Below, piece by piece: positions 6,411 through 61,232 of a stretch of 64,000 nucleotides of DNA. The notes beneath the pieces are model-generated. The model ran no database searches. It was not told where the DNA came from and saw nothing but the letters and a program-made list of their open reading frames with translations. Numbering within the stretch: position 1 is the stretch's first letter; each line of letters opens with the position of its first letter. This DNA comes from Thermoleophilia bacterium. Lineage in GTDB: Bacteria > Actinomycetota > Thermoleophilia > Solirubrobacterales > 70-9. The position numbers were made by a program, and so were the translations under genes. Where the stretch lies: NCBI GenBank assembly GCA_016650125.1, contig JAENWT010000001.1, positions 62,001 through 126,000 of the forward strand, in the 5' to 3' direction.

Positions 6411-7652
6411 ATGCCTAACCATTTCTCCAACATTCAAAGCGGCCGCGGTCGTCTGATGGCCGTCGCGCTTGCGCTGCTGGCCACGCTTATCTGCAGTTTT
6501 ATCGCCCTTCAGAGCGGTCGGGCCGATGCCGTGACGCCGCAGGAGAAGTACGACAACGCTCGTAACAAGCTCAATGACATCGCCAGCTCGGTCGATGGCC
6601 TCAAGGCACAGGTCGCCGAGGACAACCGCCAGATCGACAGCTTGCTCGGAGAACTCGCCGGGCTGACCGCGACGGCCGACGCCCTCGACGCGAAACTTGC
6701 CGCCAAACAGGCGAAGCTCGACAAGGTCGAAGCGGAGCTGGCCCGCGAGCGTGCCCATCTGAAGAAGGTCAAGGCGCACCTCCAGCGGGCCCTCGATGTC
6801 CTCCGTGAACAGCTTGTCGCCCTCTATATGTCGGGCACACCCGACGTCGCCGACATGGTGCTCGGTTCTTCGAGCTGGGACGAGATCGTCTCGCGCAGTG
6901 ATTACGCCGAGGCCATCCAGGACCGCGACGAAGCGGTCATCGGCCGGGTAACGGACCTGAGGAACGAAGTCACCGCGATCGTCGATCGTATGAGGACCCA
7001 GCAGGAACAGCTTGAGAAGGCCCGCGACGAGATTGCCGTCGAGGCAAAGGCCGCGGACGTTGCCCGTGACGCCGTTGCTTCCCAGAGGGCAGCGATCCAG
7101 GCCACGAGTGACTCACGCTCGGCCCGCATCGCCGCACTCCAGGAACAGGCCGGCGACATCGAAGGCAATCTGCCCGACCTCAGCGTCGACCCGGCCAGCA
7201 GCTCGGCCGGCCAGCAGCCCGCGCCGGTCAACGGCCAGACGGCCGTGCTCGGCTCCGATGGACTCGCCGCCGCACCCGCGGGCGCCCCGCAGGCCGTCAA
7301 GGACGTCATCGCCGCGGCCAACTCGATCGAGGATCTGCCGTATATCTGGGGCGGCGGCCACGGATCTTTTGAATCTTCCGGTTATGACTGTTCAGGTGCG
7401 GTCAGTTTCGCCCTGCACGGCGGAGGGCTGATCTCGTCTCCGCTCGACTCGACTGGACTCACCACATGGGGAGAACCGGGTGAAGGCAATTGGATCACCG
7501 TTTACGGCAACTCCGGGCACGTCTACGCCGTGATCGCCGGCCTCCGCTGGGACACATCCGGCACCGGAGGCTCGGGACCGGGCTGGTCGACCGACACTGT
7601 CTCGTTCCAGGACCCGTCGGCCTTTGTCGCGCGTCACCCCTCCGGGTTGTGA
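6411..7652 (+). CDS. Secreted coiled-coil NlpC/P60 peptidoglycan hydrolase
   Basis: 413 residues. A signal peptide covers residues 15-40 (GRLMAVALALLATLICSFIA), followed by a long coiled coil (residues 45-260) of the PcsB/CwlO N-terminal kind. A linker leads to a C-terminal NlpC/P60 domain: 'YIWGGGHG', catalytic Cys in 'YDCSGAVSFAL', and catalytic His in 'GNSGHVYAVI'. The family cleaves stem peptides (D-Glu-mDAP bonds) outside the cell, and the coiled coil normally keeps the enzyme inactive until an FtsEX-like partner activates it. The coiled coil is clearly paralogous to that of the M23 protein at 49.4 kb (shared 'QDRDE..(V/I)GRV..LR(N/D)E'). Start ATG 6411 chosen because it sits just before the signal peptide. 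Confidence 0.88.
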   Translation: MPNHFSNIQSGRGRLMAVALALLATLICSFIALQSGRADAVTPQEKYDNARNKLNDIASSVDGLKAQVAEDNRQIDSLLGELAGLTATADALDAKLAAKQAKLDKVEAELARERAHLKKVKAHLQRALDVLREQLVALYMSGTPDVADMVLGSSSWDEIVSRSDYAEAIQDRDEAVIGRVTDLRNEVTAIVDRMRTQQEQLEKARDEIAVEAKAADVARDAVASQRAAIQATSDSRSARIAALQEQAGDIEGNLPDLSVDPASSSAGQQPAPVNGQTAVLGSDGLAAAPAGAPQAVKDVIAAANSIEDLPYIWGGGHGSFESSGYDCSGAVSFALHGGGLISSPLDSTGLTTWGEPGEGNWITVYGNSGHVYAVIAGLRWDTSGTGGSGPGWSTDTVSFQDPSAFVARHPSGL

Positions 7653-7760
7653 GCGCCAGCCGGCGAGATGCCGGTAGGAGGGTTTGGACGGCGAAGCTGC
7701 CGCATGGACAAGGCGCAGTTTGGCAATCCGGGAGTCGAAGGTGGCGACTATCATTGCGAA

Positions 7761-7772
7761 GCTACTTGTAGC
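7761..7772 (+). promoter_or_regulatory. Palindrome upstream of the BlaI-type gene
   Basis: GCTACTTGTAGC, arms GCTAC and GTAGC around TT, lies 30 bases before the BlaI-family start. BlaI/MecI/CopY repressors bind TACA/TGTA-type dyads and autoregulate, so this is a candidate autoregulatory operator. Assignment is by position only. Confidence 0.4.
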
Positions 7773-7801
7773 CAGCAAGCCGGATCCGCTAAGGAGAACC
7801 C

Positions 7802-8197
7802 ATCCCGAAAAAGAGAAACAGTTCCGAGATCCGCGGTAACCTCCAGGCGGAGATCATGACCGCGGTCTGGAAGCTGGGTGAAGCGACCGTCGAACAGGTG
7901 CGCTCCGAACTTCCGGCAGGCAGTCGACCCGCCTACAACACGGTCCAAACCGTGCTCAACCGGCTGGAAGCCCGGAAGATGCTTGTCCGCGTCAAAGATG
8001 GGCGGGCGCACCTCTACAAGCCGTCCCTCGAGGAATCCGAATTCGTCACGAGATCGCTTGAAGAGCGCTTGGCCGAGGCTTCGCCGAAAGCCCGCCGGCT
8101 CGCCCTCCTCAACCTCGTCGATGAACTCGAGCCCGGCGAAGTGGACGAGATCGCCCAGCGGGCAAAACAGATCCAGGCTCGCCGTGGGGGTTCCTGA
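7802..8197 (+). CDS. blaI: BlaI/MecI/CopY-family transcriptional repressor
   Basis: 131 residues. The sequence 'EIRGNLQAEIMTAVWKLGEATVEQVRSEL' followed by 'PAYNTVQTVLNRLEARKML' is the winged-helix domain of the BlaI/MecI family; the C-terminal half provides dimerisation. These repressors are cleaved by a partner M56 metallopeptidase, and such a gene follows immediately with its ATG directly after this stop. The homology requires a start upstream of the ATG at 7856: the only position that fits is ATC 7802 (I/M-P-K-K-R-N-S-S), placed 5 bases after a perfect AAGGAG. ATC is a rare start; a base error for ATG is possible. Using ATG 7856 would remove the first recognition helix. Confidence 0.85.
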   Translation: MPKKRNSSEIRGNLQAEIMTAVWKLGEATVEQVRSELPAGSRPAYNTVQTVLNRLEARKMLVRVKDGRAHLYKPSLEESEFVTRSLEERLAEASPKARRLALLNLVDELEPGEVDEIAQRAKQIQARRGGS

Positions 8198-9151
8198 ATG
8201 CCAATCCTCGTCGTGGTCGCTGTTTTTTCGCTTTTGATGGTCGGCGCCACTCGTCTCCTTCCGCTGGATCGAGTCGCTCCCCCGATCGCCATCGCCTGCT
8301 GGCTTTGCGTGCTGGCCGTAGGCGCGATCACGACCGTCCTGGCTACCGGGCTGGTGGTCGTCTTTTTCCCCGAGACCGCGATCTACTCGTTGATTGCCGG
8401 GTGGTGCGTCCACGTCTCATTGCCGGTCTTTTCTCCTCACATTGGACTTTCGGGCCACTCGGTTCTTCACGCTGCGATGGTGGTGCCCGCGTCCGGTCTG
8501 CCGGCATCAATGTTTTGGTTGCTCTCCAGGCTCACAAACGGCTGGTGGGCACTCCGCAACCGTCTCCAGTCCTCGATCAAAACGAATCAAGGCTGGACCT
8601 TGATCGAGGATGAATCGATCGTCATGGGAGTGGCGCCGCTGGGCCGGAGTCGCATAGTGGTTTCTGACGCTGCGGTGAGGGCCATGGATCCAGACGAGCT
8701 CGAAGCCGGACTCTGCCATGAAACGGGTCACATCCGGCGGGGGCATCGTTCAATCCTGCTCACGTCGCGAGTCCTCGCAGCACTCGGGTTCGCCTTTCCT
8801 GGAACTCGACAGGCGCAGAGGGATCTTCATCAGGCCTTGGAGCGCGACGCCGACGATTACGCCGTACGACAGACCAAGGACCCGCTCGCACTCGCTAGCG
8901 CGATCTGCAAAGCCGCAACTGGTCCCCAGCCCGCCGGAGGTATCAGTCTCGGGGGAGGGCGAATCGGTCGACGCCTTGACTATCTCGAGGACGACCTGAC
9001 TCTGGTCGGTCCGTACATTCGCCGGGGGATGCGGCTGGTCGCCCTGACGTTCGTGGCCGGCACATTGATGTTTGCCGTATCAGCTTCGACCTGGGTAGCC
9101 GGATCCTCCGCCGGAGGTCATGCGTCTTCGATCAGCAGTAACGATTGTTGA
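8198..9151 (+). CDS. M56-family membrane metallopeptidase (BlaR1/MecR1-like)
   Basis: 317 residues. Three or four hydrophobic segments occur in the first 120 residues and one near residues 275-295. The zinc-protease motif is HETGH within 'AGLCHETGHIRRGH' (about residue 178), with a downstream 'ERDADDYAV' providing the third ligand, the M56/M48-like arrangement. There is no C-terminal penicillin-binding sensor domain, so it is a short BlaR1-type protease. Paired with the BlaI repressor it probably relays an envelope or metal signal by cleaving the repressor. Which signal is unknown; the copper island follows. Confidence 0.85.
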   Translation: MPILVVVAVFSLLMVGATRLLPLDRVAPPIAIACWLCVLAVGAITTVLATGLVVVFFPETAIYSLIAGWCVHVSLPVFSPHIGLSGHSVLHAAMVVPASGLPASMFWLLSRLTNGWWALRNRLQSSIKTNQGWTLIEDESIVMGVAPLGRSRIVVSDAAVRAMDPDELEAGLCHETGHIRRGHRSILLTSRVLAALGFAFPGTRQAQRDLHQALERDADDYAVRQTKDPLALASAICKAATGPQPAGGISLGGGRIGRRLDYLEDDLTLVGPYIRRGMRLVALTFVAGTLMFAVSASTWVAGSSAGGHASSISSNDC

Positions 9152-10305: not shown

Positions 10306-11285
10306 GTGCCACCTCGAGCAGGATGGCTGATCACCGGTGCAGGCGCCGCAATTGTGGGAGAGGACTTGACCGCGTTCTGGTTCGATTCGTATGTCAGTTG
10401 CTCACGGTTCCTTCCATCGCTTGAATAGCACCCGGCCAGTGAGCCGAGTCCTCCGCCCAGCAGGACGACCGCGAGGCCGGCGACAAAGATCTGGCGCTTG
10501 GAGCGTGGATGCCGCGCGACCCAGAAGGCGGCGAGTGAGATCGCAACCAAAACGAGACTGATCCATTGGGAGGTGGACATACCCAGGGCAAACGGTTCAC
10601 TGTCAACGCGATAGAAAAACATTGCAAAACGGCCGGCTCCGTAAAGTCCGACAACCGCCCAGAATAGATCTCCCGGGCGCCGGAGTCGATTTCGAAGTAG
10701 CCAGATAGCAGCTCCTATTCCCAGGGCCAGGACAACCTCGTATAAGCCACCGGGGTGATAGGCGATTACCGAGCTCGGGACCGGGGCTGCAGGGTGGGTG
10801 TATTCGATCGCCCAAGGAAGATGACTCGGCTGCCCGTAGTGCTCCCCGTTAATCAGGTCACCTATGCGCCCGATAGCCATTCCCACGGGAAAGGCGATCG
10901 CAATCGCGTCCAGATATCGGACGCTCATTCGTCGTCGCCAAATGAGGAAACCTGCGACGAGACCAGCGCCAATCATGCCGCCGTAAATCGAAAAGCCCTC
11001 GGACCCGACCCAAGCTCTTGGTTGGAGAAGGTCTCCCATGCTGTTCTCAAGCAGGAAAAGAAAGCGGGCACCGAACAGTCCTGCGACAGTCATCCAAGCT
11101 GCCAGCAAATATAGGGGCTCCGGATCGATATCCACCCGCCGTGCGTATCGGATGGAAACGTAAAGACCCGCAAGGATTCCCAACGCACTCATTAGTCCGT
11201 GCCAAGCTATGTCGAAAGGGCCAAGGTGGATGAGAGGGTCTAAGCCGATGCGAATTATGGATGCTGAAAATTCGATGGAATCCAT
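10296..11285 (-). CDS. lgt: Prolipoprotein diacylglyceryl transferase with lipobox-bearing tail
   Basis: 329 residues. Seven membrane segments and the Lgt signature 'GRIGDLINGEHYG' with the essential Arg and Asn identify the enzyme that transfers diacylglycerol from phosphatidylglycerol to the lipobox cysteine of prolipoproteins. Other conserved parts are 'HGLMSALGILAG' and 'GGLYEVVLALG'. After the normal end there is an extra segment: a basic stretch (ARHPRSKRQ), a hydrophobic run, and LAGC at about residue 284, then a 43-residue tail. That is the layout of a lipoprotein signal peptide attached to Lgt's C-terminus. The ATG abuts the 19-bp palindrome, so the transcript may be leaderless. This is a copper-island lgt, probably not the housekeeping copy. 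Confidence 0.88.
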   Translation of the reverse strand: MDSIEFSASIIRIGLDPLIHLGPFDIAWHGLMSALGILAGLYVSIRYARRVDIDPEPLYLLAAWMTVAGLFGARFLFLLENSMGDLLQPRAWVGSEGFSIYGGMIGAGLVAGFLIWRRRMSVRYLDAIAIAFPVGMAIGRIGDLINGEHYGQPSHLPWAIEYTHPAAPVPSSVIAYHPGGLYEVVLALGIGAAIWLLRNRLRRPGDLFWAVVGLYGAGRFAMFFYRVDSEPFALGMSTSQWISLVLVAISLAAFWVARHPRSKRQIFVAGLAVVLLGGGLGSLAGCYSSDGRNREQLTYESNQNAVKSSPTIAAPAPVISHPARGGTCV

Positions 11286-11304
11286 CTCCTACAACTTATA
11301 GGAG
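11286..11304 (-). promoter_or_regulatory. 19-bp palindromic operator abutting lgt
   Basis: CTCCTACAACTTATAGGAG ends directly at the lgt start codon. On the minus strand it contains TATAAG nine bases before the ATG, suitable as a -10 box for a leaderless transcript. The reverse complement of its 17-bp core recurs exactly at 15901-15917. Confidence 0.7.
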
Positions 11305-11351
11305 CTAGCCATCCGGCCCGGCGGTATGAGGTCGTGAATGCGCATGATGGC

Positions 11352-11645
11352 CTAGCCGTGCTTCAGCATCCTCCGGACTACACCCATGAGCTCCTGCGTG
11401 CGCTCCTCCTGTTTCTCGGGCTCCCCGCCGATCACGCAATGTTGGGTGTGGTCTTCAAGAAGGCCGAGGGCAACCTTGTCGAGGGCGGCCTGGATCGCGG
11501 AGATCTGGGTGACGATGTCGATGCAATAGCGGTCGTCGTCGACCATCCCCTGGACCCCCCTGACCTGTCCCTCGATCCGTCGGAGGCGCTTCTGGAGTCC
11601 TTCCTTGTCGGCTGTGTAGCCGTGGGTGTGAGTCAGATTTGTCAA
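11352..11645 (-). CDS. csoR: CsoR-family copper-sensing repressor
   Basis: 97 residues, all-helical DUF156/CsoR family. The Cu(I) ligands are in register: Cys41 (DRYCIDIV), His66 and Cys70 (EDHTQHC), i.e. C-x24-H-x3-C. The N-terminal 'KRLRRIEGQVRGVQGMV' is the family's DNA-contacting helix. Apo-CsoR represses copper genes and copper releases it. TTG 11645 is chosen because AAAGGA lies just upstream; a longer reading from TTG 11697-11699 is possible. The gene is divergent from copZ, with two matching operators between. Confidence 0.93.
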   Translation of the reverse strand: MTNLTHTHGYTADKEGLQKRLRRIEGQVRGVQGMVDDDRYCIDIVTQISAIQAALDKVALGLLEDHTQHCVIGGEPEKQEERTQELMGVVRRMLKHG

Positions 11646-50924: not shown

Positions 50925-52193
50925 CTACGCGAGTCCGAGGCGTTTGGCCCGTTCCCGGGCCTTCGCCACGATCTCATCCGCTCCTTCGACCTGCCGGTCT
51001 TTCATCAGGACCTTTCCGTCCACCACTGTTGTTTTGACGACCGATCCCGTAGCTGTGTAGACCAGATTTGACGTGAGGTCGCCGAGGGCGAGCTCATGGC
51101 TGTCCGCGTCGAGCAGCAGGAAGTCGGCCGGTTTGCCGACGGCCAGAGGGTCGGGGTCGCCGATAAGTGGAGAGCGTTGGCCGGTGGCAATCGCCCAGGC
51201 TTCTTCGACCGGGATCGCCCCGGCGCTGCCGGCCTCGTGGCGCTGGATCAGCGCGAATTGTTTGAGGTCGGCCAGCAGGTCGAGCGAATTGTTCGATCCG
51301 GCGCCATCGGTACCGAGTGCCATGTTCACGCCGGCCCGGGCCGCAGCGGGGTAAGGGAAGGCCCCTCCGACCGCGAGCTTCATGTTGGCGACCGGATTGG
51401 TGGTGACCGTGGCGCCGCGCTCGCTGACCAGTTCGAGCTCGTCCTGGTCGAGCCAGACCCCGTGGGCCAGCACGGTCCGCGGGGTCAGCAGGCCGAGGCT
51501 GTCGAGGTAGAAAGCCGGGCGGACGCCGTACTCGGAAAGGCAGTCCTCGACTTCGGGCCCGGTCTCGGACAGGTGGATGTGGATGGGCAGGTCACGTTCC
51601 GCGGCGGTGCTGATCGCGAACTCGAGGCTGGCTGCCTTGACCGTGTAGATCGAGTGTGGCGCGACCGCGGCGCTGATCCGGGGATGGAGGCCCTTCAAGG
51701 CGTCGAGGTCCTCGACCAGCGACTCGTTTCGCCCCTTCAGGTCGCTGTCCGAATTCGGATCGATCATCGGCGGGCCGATCGTTGCCCTGATGCCGGCATC
51801 GATCACGGCTTCGGCCACCGACCGCGGCTGCCAGTACATGTCCCAGAAGCGGGTGGTGCCGGTCCGGATCATCTCGAGACAGGCGAGCCGGGTGCCCCAG
51901 TAAACATCTTGCGCTCCTAACTTCGCCTCGACCGGCCAGATCGTCTCCTGGAGCCAGCGCATGAGCGGCAGGTCGTCACCGTGGCCGCGGAAGAGGGTCA
52001 TCGCGGCGTGGGTGTGGCCGTTGATCAGCGGCGGACTCAGGATCGCCCCGCCGGCGTCGAGCACCTCGTCACCGTCCCGCGGCTCGATCTCCGGTCCGAT
52101 CCCGCTGATCAGCCCGTTTTCGGCCCGCAAAGCCACCCGCTCGCCCTCGAGCCGGGCGTCGGTCAGGCAGAGGCTTCCGGCGGTCTCAGTCAT
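50925..52193 (-). CDS. Amidohydrolase/deaminase (TRZ/ATZ, MtaD-like)
   Basis: 422 residues. Metal-binding motif 'INGHTHAAM', then 'IHIHLSETGPEVEDC', 'VLAHGVWLD' and 'LGTDGAGSNNSLDLLADLKQ', the order of S-adenosylhomocysteine / methylthioadenosine / 5'-deoxyadenosine deaminases. Likely deaminates an adenosine-type nucleoside in the cytoplasm; other amidohydrolase substrates cannot be ruled out. It overlaps the DUF3817 gene by 4 bases. Confidence 0.88.
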   Translation of the reverse strand: MTETAGSLCLTDARLEGERVALRAENGLISGIGPEIEPRDGDEVLDAGGAILSPPLINGHTHAAMTLFRGHGDDLPLMRWLQETIWPVEAKLGAQDVYWGTRLACLEMIRTGTTRFWDMYWQPRSVAEAVIDAGIRATIGPPMIDPNSDSDLKGRNESLVEDLDALKGLHPRISAAVAPHSIYTVKAASLEFAISTAAERDLPIHIHLSETGPEVEDCLSEYGVRPAFYLDSLGLLTPRTVLAHGVWLDQDELELVSERGATVTTNPVANMKLAVGGAFPYPAAARAGVNMALGTDGAGSNNSLDLLADLKQFALIQRHEAGSAGAIPVEEAWAIATGQRSPLIGDPDPLAVGKPADFLLLDADSHELALGDLTSNLVYTATGSVVKTTVVDGKVLMKDRQVEGADEIVAKARERAKRLGLA

Positions 52194-52564
52194 GCGGCGG
52201 CCGCCTTCCGTCGGCTCTGAAGGATGAACTCGAGCGAACCGAAGAACGGGGCGACGCAGCCGAGCAGCGTGATCGCGACCGCCAGGCGCATGTTGATCAC
52301 CTTGTAGTGGAGGGCCAGCAGGCTCGTGATCGACATGCCGATCCAGAGCAGGCCGTGCGCCAGGCCGAGGATGAAGGTGATTGGCTCCGGGCCACCGAGC
52401 CCGAAGGCGCAGATCAGGAGGCTGGTGTAAACGACCGAATGAAAAAGGCTGACACCTTCCATCCTTCGGAAGGTGACAGCCCGGGTGAAACTCTTGCCGA
52501 ACCAGCTCTCAGGAAGTGTGGCCGGCGATGCGCTTCGGGTGGGAGGTTGTTGAACGGGGGTCAC
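52190..52564 (-). CDS. DUF3817 integral membrane protein
   Basis: 124 residues with three membrane segments: 'MEGVSLFHSVVYTSLLICAFG', 'FILGLAHGLLWIGMSITSLLAL' and 'AVAITLLGCVAPFFGSLEFIL'. The R-R-M-E-G opening and the 'GLAHG' motif are typical of DUF3817. Function unknown. GTG 52564 overlaps the upstream small gene; ATGA overlap with the amidohydrolase. Confidence 0.82.
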   Translation of the reverse strand: MTPVQQPPTRSASPATLPESWFGKSFTRAVTFRRMEGVSLFHSVVYTSLLICAFGLGGPEPITFILGLAHGLLWIGMSITSLLALHYKVINMRLAVAITLLGCVAPFFGSLEFILQSRRKAAAA

Positions 52565-52864: not shown

Positions 52865-53707
52865 TCAGTCAGTGGCGCCGGTAGTGGTCGCCGCGGCGCC
52901 CGCGCCACGGGCCGTCGCGGCCTCGCCGCGGGTCAGGCGGGTGGCCAGATAGACCGGGATCATCGAGAGGATGATCGCGATCACGGCGACCGCGTAAACC
53001 TTGCCCGGCTGGTTCGGCCGGAACAGAGTTTCGAAGATGTAGATCGGCAGGGTTTTTTCTCCGACACCGATCGTGAAGTTGGTCACCACGATTTCATCGA
53101 ACGAAAGCGCGAAGGCGAGGAGACCACCGGCCACGAGGGCGGATCGCATGTTCGGCAGGGTCACCCGCCTGAAAGTCGTCCAGGGGGTGGCGCCGAGGTC
53201 GGCCGAAGCATCCTCGAGCGATGTCGACATGCGTCTCAGACGAGCGGCCGCGTTGTTGAAGACGATCACGATGCAGAAGGTGGCGTGGGCGACGATCACC
53301 GTGAAAAGCGTGAGCTTCAGTCCGAGCACCTGGGTGAAGGTCGCGTTCAGCGCGATACCGGTGACGATGCCGGGCAGGGCGATCGGGATAAGCACGAGGA
53401 AGGTGATCGACTCGCGGCCGAAGAACTTGTGACGGGCGACGGCCAATGAAGCGAGCGTGCCGAGGATCAGAGCGAAAGCGGTTGCGACAACACCGACCTT
53501 GAGCGAGTTGAGCAGGGCGTCGCGGGCTGCCTGGTCCTGGATCGCCTTGGGGAACCATTCGAGGGTGAGGCTGTCCGGTGGCCAGGCGAGGGTCTGGGCC
53601 GGATTCATCGCGTAGAGCAGGATGATGAAGAGCGGGATGTAGATGAACGCCAGGGTGATGCCGACGGCGAGCCGCAGCAGGTTTCTTGAAACGGGGGAGA
53701 GTCTCAT
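52865..53707 (-). CDS. ABC permease, PotC-like (second system)
   Basis: 280 residues, six membrane segments; EAA loop 'LEDASADLGATPWTTFRRVTLP' and the PotC-like 'LAFALSFDEIVVTNFTIG'. The C-terminus is Ala/Thr rich. Last gene of the second polyamine-type importer operon, 9 bases after the preceding permease. Confidence 0.88.
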   Translation of the reverse strand: MRLSPVSRNLLRLAVGITLAFIYIPLFIILLYAMNPAQTLAWPPDSLTLEWFPKAIQDQAARDALLNSLKVGVVATAFALILGTLASLAVARHKFFGRESITFLVLIPIALPGIVTGIALNATFTQVLGLKLTLFTVIVAHATFCIVIVFNNAAARLRRMSTSLEDASADLGATPWTTFRRVTLPNMRSALVAGGLLAFALSFDEIVVTNFTIGVGEKTLPIYIFETLFRPNQPGKVYAVAVIAIILSMIPVYLATRLTRGEAATARGAGAAATTTGATD

Positions 53708-53716
53708 CGGCGGGCC

Positions 53717-54628
53717 TCACACATGCTCGAACGCTCCGAGCTTCCGGGCGACCAGGAGGTAGATGACCATGACCACGATCGGAATGGTCGTGATTGCCGC
53801 GGCCAGCGGCAGGTTGGAGACGAAGTTGCTGTAGACGAGGTTGCCGATGAACTGTTTCGTCCCGACATTGGCCGGCGTGATGTAGTCGCCGAGGGTCAGC
53901 GAGAAAGTGAAGATCGAACCGGCAACCACGGCCGGGAAGGTCAGCGGCAGGATGACCTTGCGGAAGGTCCGCAGGGGCTTCGCACCGAGGTCTTCCGACG
54001 CGTTCAGGACGGAGTCGGGGATGCGTTCCATACCCGCGTAGATCGGGATGATCATGTACGGGAGCCAGATGTAGGCCATCACCAGCCAGACAGCCGTCGT
54101 GCCGAACCCAGGACCGTGGAGGCCGAACGGTTCGAGCGCCCAGTTGATGGCCCCGTCTTCGGACAGCATCAGCCGCCACGCGCCGACTTTGACGAGGTAA
54201 CTCGACCAGAGCGGCAGCAGCACCGCGACCACGAGGACCGAACGCATGCTCGGCTTAGCGATCTTGGCCATGTAGAAGGCGATCGGGAAAGCGAGGATCG
54301 CGTCGGTCACCGTGACCAGTGCGGCGATCCCGATCGTCCGGAGCGCGATCGTCCGGTAGACGTCGTCGCTGAAGAGCTGGGAATAGTTCTCGAAGCTGAA
54401 GCCCTGCTGGACCTCGCCGCTCAGCTCGTTGAGGTGCCAGAACGAAGCGATGAGCATGACTCCCAGGGAACCCAGGTAGCCGATGACCAGCCATCCCAGC
54501 GGCGCGGCGAGAAGCGCCGCAACCGTGAGGCGGGGCCGCCCCTGAAAGAGGTCGGCGAGCTTCTTGCCCGCCGACCTCCGGGGTGCTGGAACTGTGGCTT
54601 CAGCAGCCACCGGCTCCAGCCGTTTCAA
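53717..54628 (-). CDS. ABC permease, PotB-like (second system)
   Basis: 303 residues with six membrane segments, cytoplasmic N-terminus rich in Pro/Arg, and EAA loop 'PDSVLNASEDLGAKPLRTFRKVILPL'-type sequence. 'LGDYITPANVG' is the PotB-like end of TM5. Works with the PotC-like partner in import. Confidence 0.88.
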   Translation of the reverse strand: MKRLEPVAAEATVPAPRRSAGKKLADLFQGRPRLTVAALLAAPLGWLVIGYLGSLGVMLIASFWHLNELSGEVQQGFSFENYSQLFSDDVYRTIALRTIGIAALVTVTDAILAFPIAFYMAKIAKPSMRSVLVVAVLLPLWSSYLVKVGAWRLMLSEDGAINWALEPFGLHGPGFGTTAVWLVMAYIWLPYMIIPIYAGMERIPDSVLNASEDLGAKPLRTFRKVILPLTFPAVVAGSIFTFSLTLGDYITPANVGTKQFIGNLVYSNFVSNLPLAAAITTIPIVVMVIYLLVARKLGAFEHV

Positions 54629-54646
54629 TCAGGTTGATCCCTTTGA

Positions 54647-55849
54647 TCAACCCTTGATTTCCGTCCAGGCCTGGACCCAGTCGTCGTACGTCTTGCAGTC
54701 GCTTCCGCCACCGCTTCCACCGTCGTCACCACATTCGCTGACCGGCGTCTGCCAGAAAGCGATCTTGTCGTAGTAGGCGGTGTCATCTGCGTGGTACGTA
54801 TCGCAGTTGGCCTTGGAGGCCTTGTCGACGTCGCAGGCCTTGAGGTTCGCCGGCGCTTCGCCGAACCAGCCGGCAACCTGTGACTGCGTTTCGGGTGAAG
54901 CCATCCAGTTCATCCACTCGAGCATGCAGTTCGGATTGGTTGCTTCCGAGCTCAGCATCCAGGTGTCGGACCAGCCGGTGGTGCCTTCTTCCGGCAAGGT
55001 TGAACTGACGGGCTGACCGTCCGCTTCCAGCGTGCTGGTCTGGTACTGCCAGCTCGAACCGATCACCGAGTCACCGTTGGTGTAGGACGAGATGTTCTTG
55101 GTCGCGTCCGGCCAGTACTCGCCGATGTTCGCGTTCTGCGCCTTGAGCAGGTCCACGGCCGCATTGAACTGCTCTTCGTTGAGCTCGTACGGGTTGTCGA
55201 TGCCGAGATCTGGCTGGTGCGTCTTCAGGTACACGGCCGCGTCAGCGATGTAGATCGGATTGTCCGGAGCCGTGATCTTGCCCTTGTACTTCGCGGCCTC
55301 CTTCTCGTCGAAGACCGAGCTCCATGACGTCGGTGCCGGGCTGACATCGTCCGTGTTGAAGAGCAGGACGTTGGCGCCCCAGCCGTGCGGCATCCCGTAA
55401 TTCTTGCCGTCGGAAGTGTTGTAGGGCTGATCCTTCAGGCTCGGATTGATGTCCGCATAGTTGGAGAGGATGCTCATGTCGACGGCATCGACGTCGCCGC
55501 CCGCCATCAGGCGTACCGAGGCGTCGCCGGAAGCGGACACACCGTCGTACTGACCGGTCCGCATCAGCTGGACCATCTCATCCGACGTGCTGGCCGTCTT
55601 GGTCTTGACCTGGCAGCCGGTCTGCTTCTCGAAACCGGAGACCCAGTCGTAGGCCGGGTCGGTGGACCCGTCTTCGGCGTAACCAGCCCAGGCGATCAGA
55701 TTCAGCGCACCTTCGGTCTTGCCGATCGACGTGACTTCGTCGGAACTTTCACTGTCGCTGCTGCTCCCACAGCCGGCGACGAGCAGGACCGCAAACAGTC
55801 CAAGCACGCAGAGCCATGCGACTCGCAGCGGGTTTTGAGTTGTACTCAT
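54647..55849 (-). CDS. Polyamine-type ABC substrate-binding lipoprotein (second system)
   Basis: 400 residues. Lipoprotein signal 'CVLGLFAVLLVAGCGSSS' with lipobox VAGC (Cys about residue 26). PotD-like features: 'LNLIAWAGYAEDGSTDP', 'GYDG'-equivalent 'RTGQYDGVSASGDASVRL', 'GMPHGWGANVLLFNTD', and 'IGSSWQYQTSTL'. Six cysteines in the mature part, several near the C-terminus, may form disulfides. Start ATG 55849 overlaps the ATPase stop by 4 bases. Confidence 0.9.
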   Translation of the reverse strand: MSTTQNPLRVAWLCVLGLFAVLLVAGCGSSSDSESSDEVTSIGKTEGALNLIAWAGYAEDGSTDPAYDWVSGFEKQTGCQVKTKTASTSDEMVQLMRTGQYDGVSASGDASVRLMAGGDVDAVDMSILSNYADINPSLKDQPYNTSDGKNYGMPHGWGANVLLFNTDDVSPAPTSWSSVFDEKEAAKYKGKITAPDNPIYIADAAVYLKTHQPDLGIDNPYELNEEQFNAAVDLLKAQNANIGEYWPDATKNISSYTNGDSVIGSSWQYQTSTLEADGQPVSSTLPEEGTTGWSDTWMLSSEATNPNCMLEWMNWMASPETQSQVAGWFGEAPANLKACDVDKASKANCDTYHADDTAYYDKIAFWQTPVSECGDDGGSGGGSDCKTYDDWVQAWTEIKG

Positions 55850-56868
55850 GAGCTTTTCTCCTCCGATGATTCGTTTTGAATTTGCGGCTGGATCGGGACG
55901 ATGTGATCCGGTCGCCAACCAACAGTCACTTCGCTGTTGATCGCTTCGTTTTTGCTAGAAGATTCGGCTTCGATGTTCTGGCGGGCGAGCTGGATCGTTC
56001 CGCCGCTGTCGAGCGCCACTCCGATCCGGGTGACCATGCCGACGTAGGCGATCTCGGAAATCCGGCCGGACTCGGTGTCGAGCCCGTCGGTGGACTCGTC
56101 TGCGCCGAGCAGACGGATCTTCTCCGGGCGGATCGTGAACCGCTTTCCGTTGCGGTCGAGCGCGTTCGAGATGCCGACGAAATCGGCGACGAACTCGTTG
56201 ACCGGGTGTTCGTAGAGATCGCGCGGAGCGCTGACCTGTTCGATCCGTCCCTGGTTGAAGACCGCGATCCGGTCGCTCATCGTCAGGGCTTCGTCCTGGT
56301 CGTGGGTGACGTATACGAAAGTGATGTCGACATCACTCTGGATCTGCTTCAACTCGACCTGCATCTGCTCGCGCAGTTTGAGGTCGAGCGCTCCGAGCGG
56401 TTCGTCGAGCAGCAGCACCCGGGGCCGGTTGACGATCGCCCTGGCCAGGGCTACCCGCTGGCGCTGACCACCGGAGAGTTCGGAGGGCTTGCGATCGTCG
56501 TGATCGGTGAGACGGACCATTTCGAGCGCCCTGCTGACGCGCTGCTTGCGCTCGCCCTTGGCCACTTTCGCAACTTCGAGGCCGTACTCGATGTTCTCGG
56601 CGACGCTCATGTGGGGAAAGAGCGCGTAGTCCTGGAAGACCGTGTTGACCTCACGGTCGTAAGGGGCGAGGCCGCCGACGTCGCGCCCGGCCAGTTCGAC
56701 CGTGCCGGAATCGGGCTCCTCGAACCCGGCGATCATCTTCAGGGTCGTGGTCTTGCCGGATCCGGAAGGGCCCAGCAGGGTGAAGAACTCGCCCGGCTGG
56801 ATTTCGAGGTCGATCGCATCGACCGCGGAGAAGTCTCCATAGCGCTTCGTCAGGCCGGTCAGGCGCAC
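55846..56868 (-). CDS. ABC importer ATPase, PotA-like (second system)
   Basis: 340 residues. Walker A 'GPSGSGKTTTLK', Q-loop 'VFQDYALFPHM', signature 'LSGGQRQRVALARAI', Walker B 'VLLLDEPLGALD', switch 'YVTHDQDEAL', then TOBE region 'FTIRPEKIRLLG' and 'VGWRPDHIVPIQP'. GTG 56868 starts at the fold without a clear ribosome site; open frame continues about 25 codons further upstream as Ser/Pro-rich sequence after an AAGGA, but with no standard start. First gene of the operon ATPase-SBP-PotB-PotC. Confidence 0.9.
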   Translation of the reverse strand: MRLTGLTKRYGDFSAVDAIDLEIQPGEFFTLLGPSGSGKTTTLKMIAGFEEPDSGTVELAGRDVGGLAPYDREVNTVFQDYALFPHMSVAENIEYGLEVAKVAKGERKQRVSRALEMVRLTDHDDRKPSELSGGQRQRVALARAIVNRPRVLLLDEPLGALDLKLREQMQVELKQIQSDVDITFVYVTHDQDEALTMSDRIAVFNQGRIEQVSAPRDLYEHPVNEFVADFVGISNALDRNGKRFTIRPEKIRLLGADESTDGLDTESGRISEIAYVGMVTRIGVALDSGGTIQLARQNIEAESSSKNEAINSEVTVGWRPDHIVPIQPQIQNESSEEKSS

Positions 56869-57069: not shown

Positions 57070-58455
57070 TCAGCCGAGACGGTTGTCGAGGTCGTCGATC
57101 GAGAGCTCGAGATCGGACATAAGGCCGTATGGCAGGCCGGTGCCCGAGAGATGGGCGATGTCGTCCCGCCACGATGAAGCCCTCCGGTCGACCGCCATAT
57201 CGGTGACGTCAGCACCGTCGTCGATCATGATCGACATCTGCCGTATTCCGTCGAGCCGGTCGCAGGCGTAAACCAGCCGGGCCCTTTCACTGCTCTCGAT
57301 CGCCCGTCGCCGGCGGTCGAGCCGGTTGGCGTCCTCGTCGGCGATCGCCGGATCCTCGCTGAGGTCGATGACCAGATCGCGGATCTCGTCGCCGAAGGCA
57401 CGGTCGAGCTCGTCGGCTGTGACGCTGGACTTTTCGATCGTGTCGTGGAGGTAGGCGACCGCGACGGAAACGTCGTCTCCGTACCTGGCGACCTCGTCGG
57501 CTACCGCCGCCGGGTGCCTGATGAAAGGAGAATCGCCACCGAACTTGCCCGGAGTCTCCCGGTGGGCCTTTGCTGCGAAGGCGTAGGCCTTGGCCGGAAG
57601 GTGGAGCGGCTGCGATCCGGCCTGGCGATCGGGGTGGTCGCGCTGGACGAAGCGCTCGGCGCCGAGCTTCATCTCGGGGTCTCCCATCAGGCGATTGAAG
57701 CATTCGGCCTCGAGTTCGAGGCCTTCTTCGAGCGGCCGCCCAAAGCCACGCGCCGCAGCTTCGAGGTCGGTCCGGAGGGCCGGCTGGGGCAGGGCGGCGA
57801 TTTCACGCGCCCAGGCCAGCGCTTCTTCGACACAGGTCCCGCTCGGCACGATCCGGTTGACCAGTCCGATCCGGGCGGCCTCCTCGGCGCCGATGACCCT
57901 TCCGGTGATGATCAGGTCGAGAGCCGGCCCGAGGCCGACGAGGCGGGGGAGCCGCTGGGTGCCGCCATCGCCGAGTCCGACGTTCCAGCGGCGACAGGTG
58001 ACACCGAAGGAGGCGTGCCGGTCGGCGACCCTGAGGTGGGCGAAGCAGGCCCATTCGAGCCCGCCGGCGTAAGCGGCACCATTGACCGCGGCGATGACCG
58101 GCTTGTGGATGTCGGCCCAGCGGGTCGGGCCGATGTTGCCTTCGGCCGGGATCGGGTGGTTGTCGAGCCCGTCCGAGATGTCGAAGAGCGGCTCGACCTC
58201 AGGCACGTCCTCGTACATGGCGGCGACGGAATGGAGGTCGGCCCCGGCACAGAAGGCGTCCGGACCGGCGCCGGTGATGACCAGTACCCGGGCCGAGTCG
58301 TCGTCCCGGAACCTCGCCATCGCTTCGAACAGACCGCGCGATTCGACCGGCCCGATCGCGTTCATACGATCCGGGCGGTTGATGGTCAGCAGCTGGACTC
58401 CGGACACCTCAATGTCCTCGAGCCGGATGGTTTCGGGCAGTTCTGCCGGGCTCAC
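57070..58455 (-). CDS. Crotonase (enoyl-CoA hydratase-like) fused to RelA/SpoT-type HD domain
   Basis: 461 residues. Residues 1-275 are a crotonase: 'LTINRPDRMNAIGP', oxyanion-hole 'AFCAGADLHS', 'GAAYAGGLEWACFAHLRVAD' (Glu equivalent to rat Glu144) and 'FGVTCRRWNVGLGDGGTQRL', where the second catalytic Glu is Cys. Residues 285-461 match single-domain ppGpp hydrolases (MESH1/SAH): 'AYAFAAKAHRETPGKFGG', 'FIRHPAAVADEVARYG', 'VAYLHDTIEKSSVTADEL', 'FGDEIRDLVIDLSEDP' and 'LVYACDRLDGIRQM', giving H...HD...D. No stop or frame break separates the parts. Its stop-side neighbour is a promoter gap; its start overlaps the following gene by 4 bases. Confidence 0.82.
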   Translation of the reverse strand: MSPAELPETIRLEDIEVSGVQLLTINRPDRMNAIGPVESRGLFEAMARFRDDDSARVLVITGAGPDAFCAGADLHSVAAMYEDVPEVEPLFDISDGLDNHPIPAEGNIGPTRWADIHKPVIAAVNGAAYAGGLEWACFAHLRVADRHASFGVTCRRWNVGLGDGGTQRLPRLVGLGPALDLIITGRVIGAEEAARIGLVNRIVPSGTCVEEALAWAREIAALPQPALRTDLEAAARGFGRPLEEGLELEAECFNRLMGDPEMKLGAERFVQRDHPDRQAGSQPLHLPAKAYAFAAKAHRETPGKFGGDSPFIRHPAAVADEVARYGDDVSVAVAYLHDTIEKSSVTADELDRAFGDEIRDLVIDLSEDPAIADEDANRLDRRRRAIESSERARLVYACDRLDGIRQMSIMIDDGADVTDMAVDRRASSWRDDIAHLSGTGLPYGLMSDLELSIDDLDNRLG

Positions 58456-58904
58456 TCGGCCGGAACGGTCGGGATGACCGGAGTGGTCGTGCCGGTGACG
58501 CCGCTGGGGGTGACGCCTGTGTCGGGCAAGGTGGTTCCCGTGTTCGGCACTCCGGTCTCGGGCACGGTGGTTTCCGGCAGAAGCTCTCCGGTGGTGGCCC
58601 CGGTAGCGGCTTCGAGGGCTTCGACCCTGGTCTCGAGGGCGTTGATCCGATCGCTGTCGCTGTTCTTGGTGACCGAGATGTAGATCGCTGCGGCGCCGAC
58701 ACCAACGGCCAGGCAGGTCAGAACGAGAGCGATGATCGAACGTTTCTTGAGCGAGCGGTCGATCTCGTTCAGCCAGCCGCGCTGGCCGTCAAGCCTCGTC
58801 GCCAGGTCGGCCGGCGGGCGCGGCTGGGCCGGCGGCTGAGTGCGTGGCCGCGGGGTCTGCTGCGGGCGTGGCGGTACGGCACCTGGTCTCGGCGGATTAG
58901 TCAT
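58452..58904 (-). CDS. Single-TM protein with coiled coil and Thr/Pro-rich tail
   Basis: 150 residues: Pro/Arg/Gln-rich cytoplasmic start, TM at about 55-78 (KKRSIIALVLTCLAVGVGAAA), a short coiled coil 'DRINALETRVEALEAA', then a Thr/Pro-rich tail with PETG/NTG/PDTG repeats. The LPDTG within it resembles a sortase motif but is not followed by a hydrophobic segment. No family recognised. Overlaps the crotonase-HD start by 4 bases, so probably co-translated. Confidence 0.65.
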   Translation of the reverse strand: MTNPPRPGAVPPRPQQTPRPRTQPPAQPRPPADLATRLDGQRGWLNEIDRSLKKRSIIALVLTCLAVGVGAAAIYISVTKNSDSDRINALETRVEALEAATGATTGELLPETTVPETGVPNTGTTLPDTGVTPSGVTGTTTPVIPTVPAE

Positions 58905-59025: not shown

Positions 59026-60204
59026 ATGCCTGAAGCAGTGATCGTGGACACCGTCCGCACCCCGATCGGCCGCGCCTTCAAGGGCTCGCTTTCCCCGCTC
59101 CGTCCCGACGACACCGGCGCCTTCGTCATCGACCAGCTTCTCGAGCGCAACCCTGGCGTCGATCCGGCCACCGTTGAAGAAGTCTTTTGTGGTGTCGGCA
59201 TGCCGCAGGGCAAGCAGGCCTACAACCTGGCCCGCATTCTCGTCCTGCTCTCGAACAAGCTGACGCAGGCCACAACCGGCGTCACCATGTCGCGTTACTG
59301 CGCCTCGAGCCTCGACGCCATCCGTCACGCCTCGAACGCTGTCAAGAACGGCGAGGGTGACATCTACATCGCCGCGGGAGTCGAGTTCGTCAGCTCGTTC
59401 AACGAGCGCAGCGAGATCGCCGGATCCCGCGCCGCCGGACAGGAAGACCAGAGCGAGTACCTGATCGGCACCGACGGCACCCCCAACGCGTACATCGACA
59501 TGGGCATCACCGCGGTCAACGTCGCCAACAAGTATGGCGTCAGCCGCGACGCGATGGACGACTACGCCCTGCGCTCGCAGCACCTCGCCGTGGCTTCACA
59601 GGAGAGCGGCTTCTTCGATCGCGAGATCATTCCGGTCACCCTGCCCGACGGCACCGTTGTCGCCAAGGACGACGGCCCCCGTGCCGACGGTGGCGAGATG
59701 CGTGAGAAGCTCGGCAGCCTGCCGGAAGCTTTCGGCGGCGGTGGAGTCACTGCCGGTAACTCATGCCCCCTGAACGACGGCGCCGCTGCCGTTCTGATCA
59801 TGAGCGACACCAAGGCCAAGGAACTCGGCCTCACCCCGCGAGCGAAGATCATCACCGCGGCCACGGCCGGCAACGAGCCCGAGATGATGGGCGTCGCCCC
59901 GATCGAAGCCGTCAAGAAGCTCCTGAAGCGCGCCAACATGTCGATTGACGACATCGGCACGGTCGAGCTGAACGAAGCATTCGCCGCCCAGGTGATCCCG
60001 ATCTCGGAAGAGGTCGGCATCCCGATGGACAAGCTCAACACCCACGGCGGAGCGATCGCCCTCGGACATCCCTTCGGAATGACCGGAGCCCGCATCATGG
60101 GAACCCTCCTGAACGTCATGGAGACCGATGACCACCAGTTCGGCATCGAGACGATGTGTGTAGCGGGCGGTCAGGGTGAAGCCATGCTGGTCGAACGGGT
60201 TTAG
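59026..60204 (+). CDS. Acetyl-CoA acyltransferase (thiolase)
   Basis: 392 residues. Nucleophile Cys in 'SRYCASSLDAIRHA' (about residue 90), 'NEAFAAQVIP', catalytic His in 'GGAIALGHPFGMTGAR' and second Cys in 'MCVAGGQGEAML'. This is the degradative FadA-like pattern: thiolysis of 3-ketoacyl-CoA, the final step of beta-oxidation. AAGGAG precedes the ATG. A strong terminator follows. Confidence 0.94.
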   Translation: MPEAVIVDTVRTPIGRAFKGSLSPLRPDDTGAFVIDQLLERNPGVDPATVEEVFCGVGMPQGKQAYNLARILVLLSNKLTQATTGVTMSRYCASSLDAIRHASNAVKNGEGDIYIAAGVEFVSSFNERSEIAGSRAAGQEDQSEYLIGTDGTPNAYIDMGITAVNVANKYGVSRDAMDDYALRSQHLAVASQESGFFDREIIPVTLPDGTVVAKDDGPRADGGEMREKLGSLPEAFGGGGVTAGNSCPLNDGAAAVLIMSDTKAKELGLTPRAKIITAATAGNEPEMMGVAPIEAVKKLLKRANMSIDDIGTVELNEAFAAQVIPISEEVGIPMDKLNTHGGAIALGHPFGMTGARIMGTLLNVMETDDHQFGIETMCVAGGQGEAMLVERV

Positions 60205-60234
60205 TTGTGCTGACTCACTGATTTACGCTACGTC

Positions 60235-60262
60235 GAAAGGGCGGCCAGTTGGCCGCCCTTTC
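60235..60262 (+). terminator. Intrinsic terminator after the thiolase gene
   Basis: Perfect 12-bp stem GAAAGGGCGGCC / GGCCGCCCTTTC with loop AGTT, 30 bases after the stop; the 3' arm ends CCCTTTCTCGTT. Confidence 0.9.
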
Positions 60263-60459
60263 TCGTTGAGTCGTGGCAGGCGGGCGGGCCCGGGAACGAC
60301 CTGGGCGCGCCTGGACTTCGTCGACGCTCGCCCGGCTTGCTCAGACACGTGAGTGAAATCGCGTCGCCGGCTCGCTTACTCCTCGCCAGCCGTGCCCAGG
60401 ACCGTCCCCGTGCACCACCCTCATCGGTGGAACTACAGAGCACCGGCTGCCCCCGGCCG

Positions 60460-60510
60460 GGAAGTGACCGAATTAAGGGCGTCAGGACCGCCCTTATTCC
60501 GGTCACTTCC
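60460..60510. repeat. Large inverted repeat (22-bp stem)
   Basis: Arms 60460-60481 and 60489-60510 pair at 20 of 22 positions around a 7-base loop (TCAGGAC). Outer GC-rich flanks (CCCGGCC, ACCGGGAG) may extend it. Confidence 0.8.
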
Positions 60511-60544
60511 ACCGGGAGCCGAAGACGGCCGAGCACTGACTGCC

Positions 60545-60602
60545 CTCAAAGGCGACCTGGCGGAGCACTGGCTGCTCTCAAAGGCGACCTGGCGGAGCAC
60601 TG
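60545..60602. repeat. Tandem 26-bp direct repeat, 32-bp period
   Basis: Two exact copies of a 26-base unit starting CTCAAAGGCGACCTGGCGGA at 60545-60570 and 60577-60602. A partial third copy (GAGCACTGACTGCC) precedes them near 60531. Confidence 0.85.
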
Positions 60603-60813
60603 ACGGCTCTCTGAGGGAGCACCCGGACTCGCTCGCTTCGCTCCCGCGCTTCGCACGGTTTGGCGTGTGTTGGTCTTGCGTTAACTTGGGGCTCTTAGGG
60701 GGAACTGGCAAGGATTTCCGCTCGCATAGACGTAAAATCCTTTCCAGAAGTGGGGGGGGGTTCAGACCTTCTAGGGCCAATTGCTCCCCTTGTATTCCAA
60801 GGCTGTCGTGTAA

Positions 60814-60944
60814 GCAAACGTCGTAATTTCCCAGGTGCGATGTCGCAAAGACCTGACACTGCAGCAAACGCCGTGATTTCCCAGGTGCGATGTCGATGCG
60901 GCAGCCCACTGCAGCAAACGCCGTGATTTCCCAGTTGGGAAATC
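60814..60944. repeat. Triple direct repeat with exact 50-bp period
   Basis: Copies start at 60814, 60864 and 60914. Each has GCAAACG(C/T)CGT(G/A)ATTTC followed by CCAG; the first two continue GTGCGATGTCG (32 bases), the third turns into a 9-bp-stem palindrome GATTTCCCA/TGGGAAATC at 60925-60944. The 18 bases between units differ, but copies 2 and 3 are both preceded by CACTGCA. Confidence 0.85.
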
Positions 60945-60997
60945 CGGCGCCTGATGCAAAGCTGTGAAGTCGGAGGGAGGGCGAAACCTTCCGGCTT

Positions 60998-61113
60998 TTC
61001 CCTGATCCGGGTTCGCCCGCCACCCGCGGTAGACCGACTCGTCCCTCACAGGGCGGAACCACCCTTCTTCCCTGATCCGGGTCCGTCCGCCATGACGGTA
61101 GACCGACTACCCG
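60998..61113. repeat. Direct repeat pair, 70-bp period
   Basis: Two copies of about 45 bases start TTCCCTGATCCGGG at 60998 and 61068 and both end CGGTAGACCGACT, with a few substitutions and a 2-base length difference inside. Confidence 0.8.
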
Positions 61114-61232
61114 GCCCTTTGCCCCCGGCCTCCTGGGCCGGGGCGCTCGTTCCGCGACCCACACTGACCAGGTCCCGGACAGGGGTGCCCGTTCCGCGCC
61201 CCAGGGTGAAGGGCATCTTGGACAGGGGTGAA

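What the first reader, a model, noticed from the sequence alone, without database searches (positions are those of the whole stretch)
57070..58455. Crotonase fused to a ppGpp-hydrolase-like HD domain in one polypeptide
Seen: a continuous 461-codon frame with complete crotonase motifs followed by H...HD...D motifs aligned with MESH1/SAH small alarmone hydrolases. Such a fusion would link acyl-CoA metabolism to alarmone or NADPH turnover (MESH1 also hydrolyses NADPH). The second crotonase Glu is Cys. I know of no described enzyme with this architecture.
Basis: partly seen in the sequence, partly recalled or inferred. Interest (0 to 1): 0.75.

Follow-up and report, generated by a model that had tools for sequence, protein, structure and literature searches.

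The report
Crotonase fused to alarmone-hydrolase-like HD domain
In one genus of uncultured actinobacteria, an acyl-CoA-binding enzyme is joined in one protein to a relative of the enzyme that destroys the bacterial alarm signal ppGpp; the joined domain has kept its metal centre but lost the parts that recognise ppGpp, so it probably acts on something else, and coenzyme A itself is a good candidate.

Summary
Window 57070-58455 (minus strand) is one 461-codon frame holding an EchA5-like crotonase (ECH_1, 148 bits) and a MESH1-like HD_4 domain (43 bits). It is no artefact: 12 other assemblies of the same genus carry the full-length fusion at 54-67% identity, at the same locus beside a thiolase, with purifying selection over both domains and the linker and no conserved internal start. 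I found it in no other genus (232 order, 399 class and 397 phylum genomes searched). Two genus members have HD alone at the same locus; trees suggest secondary loss of the crotonase.

The four metal ligands and catalytic Glu are invariant, but the ppGpp-recognising Arg and Asn (RelSeq R44, N148) and the second catalytic acid (MESH1 D66) are replaced in every member; free relatives of the order all keep the Arg, and the nearest sit among polyphosphate/alarmone genes. So it is probably not an ordinary (p)ppGpp hydrolase. Because MESH1 was shown in 2026 to remove the 3'-phosphate of CoA, I favour an (acyl-)CoA or related 3'-phosphohydrolase (unproven); a catalytically dead ligand sensor is the main rival.

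The parts
57070..58455 (-). Fusion gene, 461 codons, GTG start, TGA stop
   Evidence: full-length relatives
57631..58404 (-). Crotonase (ECH_1) domain, residues 18-275, EchA5-like; E134 kept, second Glu = C154
57589..57630 (-). Linker, residues 276-289, conserved across the genus, no conserved start codon
57235..57588 (-). HD_4 domain, residues 290-407, MESH1-like
57073..57234 (-). C-terminal helices, residues 408-461, less conserved (invariant R425, W429, L445)
57514..57516 (-). Metal ligand H314 (MESH1 H35)
57442..57447 (-). Metal ligands H337-D338 (MESH1 H61-D62)
57430..57435 (-). E341 (MESH1 E65, kept) and K342 (MESH1 D66, replaced)
   Evidence: D66K inactive: PMC9894426
57259..57261 (-). 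Metal ligand D399 (MESH1 D122)
57547..57549 (-). G303 in place of MESH1 R24 / RelSeq R44 (guanine recognition, needed for hydrolysis)
   Evidence: PMC13299517
57247..57249 (-). G403 in place of MESH1 N126 / RelSeq N148 (guanine recognition)
   Evidence: PMC13299517
58452..58904 (-). Upstream gene of the same operon (4-base overlap): 150-aa protein, proline-rich ends, one hydrophobic helix, likely coiled coil; no Pfam family; conserved at the locus
59026..60204 (+). Divergent acetyl-CoA C-acetyltransferase (thiolase), conserved neighbour
52865..56868 (-). Polyamine-type ABC transporter operon, downstream in this and some other genus members only
52190..52564 (-). Small membrane-type protein conserved downstream of the fusion in the genus
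50925..52193 (-). Amidohydrolase (nucleoside-deaminase-like family), conserved downstream in the genus

Best explanation
It is a genuine two-domain protein of one Solirubrobacterales genus: an EchA5-like crotonase that binds acyl-CoA, joined by a short conserved linker to an HD phosphohydrolase descended from small alarmone hydrolases. The HD has kept its single-metal centre and catalytic Glu but lost the residues that read guanine, so it most likely no longer serves (p)ppGpp. I propose that it hydrolyses the 3'-phosphate of CoA, or of the acyl-CoA handled by the crotonase (giving dephospho-CoA, which CoaE can rephosphorylate), or a closely similar adenine nucleotide, tying acyl-CoA turnover to CoA supply. 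Shown: architecture, conservation, residue losses, locus, single origin of the fusion, presence of CoaE. Inferred: catalysis, substrate, coupling of the two sites.
For: One frame with both domains; 13 genus genomes carry it full-length at one locus beside a thiolase; dN/dS medians 0.21 crotonase, 0.20 linker, 0.37 HD (59); fused crotonases form one clade, 98/98 (57). Metal ligands H, HD, D and the Glu are invariant in 14/14 while R44 and N148 equivalents are lost in 14/14; free relatives keep the Arg in 14/14 (58, 84). Nearest free relatives lie among PPK, Ppx/GppA, PhoU-like and CHAD genes; the same cluster in the window's own genome has no HD gene, so the HD of this genus sits in an acyl-CoA context instead of a polyphosphate/alarmone one. 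No small alarmone synthetase in the genome, one intact Rel. MESH1, the closest solved relative, dephosphorylates CoA and all acyl-CoAs tested at the 3' position, kcat/Km 3.3 per s per mM for CoA, and its authors suggest the same for bacterial SAH/SpoT (PMC13221220; 16, 17, 47). CoaE present. Both domains model with confidence: mean pLDDT 91, pTM 0.82.
Against: No activity shown. K342 matches the inactivating MESH1 D66K change (26), although 8 of 14 free relatives also lack this Asp (84). The HD survives without the crotonase in G007 and G016 (37, 54, 56), so its function does not need the crotonase in cis. The crotonase lacks the second catalytic Glu, so its own reaction is unknown. Residues that bind CoA in MESH1 are not given in the papers I could read, so CoA recognition could not be tested. 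The relative placement of the two active sites was not available from the model output.
Confidence: 0.35

Rival explanations
1. The HD domain is a catalytically dead ligand-binding or dimerising module: it binds a nucleotide (alarmone, NADPH or CoA) and regulates the crotonase.
For: Lys at the MESH1 D66 position, which as D66K makes MESH1 inactive yet still able to bind NADPH in the crystal; the HD evolves faster than the crotonase; a RelA hydrolase domain acting as a switch is reported (title cited in PMC9965611).
Against: All metal ligands and the catalytic Glu are invariant in 14/14, unusual for a dead site; free relatives near polyphosphate/alarmone genes also have Lys or Gln there; the HD is kept alone after loss of the crotonase, so it is not only a regulator in cis.
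Confidence: 0.3
2. One reading: a (p)ppGpp (or ppApp) hydrolase fused to a crotonase, linking acyl-CoA metabolism to alarmone turnover.
For: HD_4 family hit and MESH1/Rel similarity; metal centre and Glu intact; relatedness to SAH-like proteins of the order.
Against: The R44 equivalent, whose R44Q change abolishes RelSeq hydrolysis, and the N148 equivalent are both lost in every member; D66 replaced; a full Rel hydrolase is present elsewhere and there is no small synthetase to counter. ppApp is less excluded than ppGpp, because the lost residues contact guanine.
Confidence: 0.17
3. The HD domain is an NADPH (2'-phosphate) phosphatase, shifting the NADPH/NADH balance next to beta-oxidation genes.
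For: MESH1 and a Xanthomonas SAH do this (PMC9894426, PMC9765508).
Against: Nothing in the locus or residues points to NADPH in particular; crotonases use no nicotinamide cofactor.
Confidence: 0.12
4. Assembly artefact, frameshift-made fusion, or two genes read as one.
For: All genomes of the genus seen here are drafts.
Against: 13 assemblies with the same junction at 54-67% protein identity, linker under purifying selection, no internal start conserved.
Confidence: 0.01

Closest known systems
MESH1 / HDDC3 (PDB 3nr1, 5vxa), small alarmone hydrolase
   Same: Same HD_4 family, best PDB sequence match (E 1.6e-14); same H, HD, E, D metal/catalytic set
   Different: MESH1 is a single domain with R24, N126 and D66; here Gly/Asp, Gly/Ser and Lys/His, and a crotonase is fused in front
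Bacterial SAHs such as XccSAH (Mesh1-L) and Rel/SpoT hydrolase domains
   Same: Hydrolase core and metal ligands
   Different: References checked keep the base-recognition Arg and Asn; small RSHs are described as generally single-domain (PMC3153485); no crotonase partner described
EchA5-type crotonases (PDB 4z0m, 3qka, 4qfe)
   Same: Same subfamily, about 41-44% identity, Cys at the second Glu position (FGVFCRRW versus FGVTCRRW)
   Different: EchA5 is free-standing; no PDB chain listed aligns with the HD part as well
Multifunctional beta-oxidation enzymes (FadB, peroxisomal bifunctional enzyme)
   Same: Crotonase at the N terminus of a longer polypeptide (own knowledge; 3zwb is among the hits)
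   Different: Their partner is a 3-hydroxyacyl-CoA dehydrogenase, not an HD phosphohydrolase

Membership tests
Small alarmone hydrolase (SAH/Mesh1) | HD_4 (PF13328) domain above curated cut-off | tested here: met
   43.0 bits versus 27.2
Small alarmone hydrolase (SAH/Mesh1) | Metal ligands H35, H61-D62, D122 and catalytic E65 (MESH1 numbering) | tested here: met
   14/14 members of the locus
Small alarmone hydrolase (SAH/Mesh1) | Second acid D66 | tested here: not met
   K in 13, H in 1 of 14; also variable in free relatives of the order
Small alarmone hydrolase (SAH/Mesh1) | Base-recognition Arg (RelSeq R44 / MESH1 R24) and Asn (N148 / N126) | tested here: not met
   G/D and G/S in 14/14; roles from PMC13299517
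Small alarmone hydrolase (SAH/Mesh1) | HD-only, single-domain protein | tested here: not met
   fused to a crotonase in 13 genus genomes; HD-only in G007 and G016
Small alarmone hydrolase (SAH/Mesh1) | Hydrolysis of (p)ppGpp/(p)ppApp | not testable with these tools
   needs purified protein
Crotonase superfamily, EchA5-like | ECH_1 domain, AGAD and GGLE motifs | tested here: met
   147.8 bits; motifs invariant; model matches EchA5-type structures with TM up to 0.94 on the target
Crotonase superfamily, EchA5-like | Cys at the second Glu position, as in EchA5 | tested here: met
   C154 invariant in fusions and in the three nearest free crotonases
Classical enoyl-CoA hydratase | Both catalytic Glu residues (rat E144 and E164) | tested here: not met
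   E134 present, second is C154
Antitoxin-type SAH of a toxSAS pair | Paired small alarmone synthetase | tested here: not met
   only one RelA_SpoT domain in the genome, in the long Rel
CoA 3'-phosphatase (MESH1-like activity) | Release of the CoA 3'-phosphate | not testable with these tools
   proposed by analogy with PMC13221220

The most novel reading that the evidence does not exclude
A bacterial acyl-CoA enzyme with a built-in CoA 3'-phosphatase evolved from an alarmone hydrolase: a new type of bifunctional CoA-turnover enzyme and a first bacterial case of the CoA phosphatase activity recently found in MESH1.
Probability: 0.22. Interest if true: 0.85.

Novelty: new variant of a known kind. 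Interest (0 to 1): 0.58.

Why it matters
Whether bacterial SpoT/SAH-type HD domains act on CoA is an open question stated by the authors who found MESH1 to be a CoA phosphatase (PMC13221220). This fusion couples such a domain to an acyl-CoA-binding partner and comes with natural controls: HD-only orthologues at the same locus, free crotonase relatives, and free alarmone-type relatives that kept the guanine-reading residues. It makes the question directly testable with one protein and a phosphate-release assay, and suggests how a short alarmone-hydrolase domain can change its role.

Tried and rejected
Assembly artefact or two genes (rejected). Toxin-antitoxin or small-synthetase partner (rejected). 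HD-only as the ancestral state at the locus (less likely: HD and thiolase trees put G007/G016 beside the fusion-bearing G005, 98/92 and 91/88, while fused crotonases are one clade). Fusion-specific meaning of K342 (rejected: K, Q and R also occur in free relatives). Fusion-specific meaning of C154 (rejected: shared with EchA5). The first structure model was poor in the crotonase because the alignment was shallow; a deeper alignment fixed it. Domain geometry could not be read because coordinates are not returned. The 2026 CoA paper gave no residue-level account of CoA binding; the MESH1 NADPH structure paper is not held. A small extra phylum search added only Rel-type matches and one or two short frames, not followed.

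Full report
OBSERVATION. The frame at 57070-58455 on the minus strand is open for 461 codons with a GTG start. Its GTGA overlaps the stop of an upstream gene (58452-58904), so the two are probably translated together. Pfam finds ECH_1 at residues 18-275 (147.8 bits) and HD_4 at 290-407 (43.0 bits, curated cut-off 27.2), besides a second crotonase model over the same stretch. By sequence the HD half is closest among solved proteins to MESH1 (E 1.6e-14), then Rel proteins and SAHs; the crotonase half is closest to mycobacterial EchA5. AlphaFold2 on a 54-row alignment models both domains with confidence (mean pLDDT 91.4, pTM 0.82, nothing below 50); Foldseek lists EchA5 first, and no listed PDB chain aligns with both domains.

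IT IS NOT AN ARTEFACT. None has a stop inside. In 12 aligned sequences the junction residues HPDR, PL and a following P are invariant. Median pairwise dN/dS (Nei-Gojobori, pairs with dS under 1.5) is 0.21 for the crotonase, 0.20 for the linker, 0.37 for the HD and 0.52 for the last 48 residues; close pairs give about 0.07-0.13, 0.06-0.24, 0.14-0.24 and 0.09-0.35. No start codon is conserved near the junction.

DISTRIBUTION AND LOCUS. Of 18 genus genomes, 13 have the full fusion (G000, 001, 002, 004, 005, 006, 008, 009, 010, 012, 013, 014, 017), G015 has the end of an HD of this type at a contig edge, G007 and G016 have the HD alone, and in G003 and G011 neither was found. Searches of 232 genomes of the order with an HD profile, 399 of the class with the whole protein and 397 of the phylum with the fusion profile showed no other genome whose listed match covers both domains; the others are crotonase-only, or HD-only. 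The locus is conserved: divergent thiolase, small membrane-type protein, fusion, second small membrane-type protein, amidohydrolase; in the window and a few others a polyamine-type ABC operon lies directly after the fusion. In G007 and G016 the same order is kept with only the HD after the first small protein (G016's contig ends in the HD). The fused crotonases form one clade (98/98) whose sisters are free crotonases of three genera of other families (95/91), all with the same FGVTCRRW motif. The HD tree puts G007/G016 beside the fused G005 (98/92) and so does the thiolase tree (91/88). The simplest history is one fusion in the ancestor of the genus and one later loss of the crotonase. That the HD is kept alone suggests that it has a function of its own.

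WHAT THE HD DOMAIN CAN AND CANNOT DO. Mapped on MESH1, the metal ligands H35, H61, D62, D122 and the catalytic E65 are invariant in all 14 members of this locus, in 14 free relatives of the order, in 24 proteins from other phyla and in the references. But R24 (RelSeq R44) is Gly or Asp in 14/14 locus members and Arg in 14/14 free relatives of the order and 21/24 elsewhere; N126 (RelSeq N148) is Gly or Ser in 14/14 locus members, Asn in 10/14 free relatives (Lys in 4) and Asn in 24/24 elsewhere. These two residues contact the guanine, and R44Q abolishes hydrolysis in RelSeq (PMC13299517). D66 is Lys in 13 and His in 1; in MESH1 the D66K change makes the enzyme inactive but still able to bind NADPH (PMC9894426). 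Since 8/14 free relatives also lack this Asp, that alone does not prove inactivity. The same genome has one long Rel with all these residues and no small synthetase, so neither alarmone clearance nor antitoxin duty calls for the fusion.

A CHANGE OF CONTEXT. In sister genera the free HD protein lies next to polyphosphate kinase, PhoU-like, CHAD and Ppx/GppA genes, a phosphate/alarmone setting, and keeps Arg and Asn. In the window's own genome that cluster is present but the HD gene is absent; a frame that reads as a PiT-type phosphate transporter lies between its former neighbours (the transporter name is my reading of the sequence). So the HD of this genus sits instead at a thiolase locus, joined to a crotonase, with its guanine-reading residues gone. 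Whether it is the same gene moved or a different copy cannot be said.

MECHANISM (inference). MESH1 removes the 3'-pyrophosphate of ppGpp, the 2'-phosphate of NADPH and, as reported in 2026, the 3'-phosphate of CoA and of every acyl-CoA tested; its authors suggest that bacterial SAH/SpoT may do the same (PMC13221220). CoA carries a 3'-phosphate on an adenosine and is what a crotonase binds. A CoA or acyl-CoA 3'-phosphohydrolase is therefore the reading that best joins the two halves; CoaE, which would put the phosphate back, is encoded. I put this at about 0.22 for CoA itself and 0.35 with close adenine-nucleotide substrates. A dead, ligand-sensing HD is nearly as likely (0.3). A true alarmone hydrolase is less likely (0.17) and an NADPH phosphatase less again (0.12). 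The crotonase lacks the second catalytic Glu, as EchA5 does, so it too may not be a simple hydratase.

NOVELTY. No paper found joins crotonase and HD domain, and the main survey of the RSH superfamily describes small RSHs as generally single-domain, with DUF429-actRel as the exception (PMC3153485). The library holds open-licence papers only, so this is not proof of absence. Both domains belong to known families; the architecture and the combination of residue losses are new, hence 'new variant of a known kind'.

Noticed in passing
L115, L116, L117 (sister genera G019, G024, G026): A free SAH-like HD_4 gene sits in a conserved cluster with polyphosphate kinase, PhoU-like, CHAD and Ppx/GppA genes: a possible link of alarmone hydrolysis to polyphosphate metabolism.
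   Followed up: partly
L173 (G000:C22:22000-39117): The same polyphosphate cluster in the window's own genome lacks the HD gene and has what reads as a phosphate transporter gene in its place.
   Followed up: partly
L112 (G007) 10958-11530 and L113 (G016) 7243-7740: HD-only orthologues of the fusion at the same locus, apparently after loss of the crotonase part.
   Followed up: yes
L118 (G055) 7465-8270: The free crotonase closest in sequence to the fused one looks frameshifted or interrupted between query residues 74 and 106.
   Followed up: no
window 58452-58904: Conserved operon partner with no known family: proline-rich ends, one membrane helix and a likely coiled coil.
   Followed up: no
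window 52865-56868: A polyamine-type ABC transporter operon lies between the fusion and its usual downstream neighbours in some genus members (G000, G006; also adjoining in G010 and G015) but not in others.
   Followed up: no
window 60230-61170: The stretch between thiolase and L-2-hydroxyglutarate oxidase shows only spurious-looking frames with recurring peptides (TSHLGN), suggesting repeated DNA.
   Followed up: no
free HD_4 proteins of Solirubrobacterales (L085-L099): The HDxxED motif often reads HDxxEK, EQ or ER in otherwise intact SAH-like proteins, so the second acid may be dispensable in this group, unlike in MESH1.
   Followed up: partly
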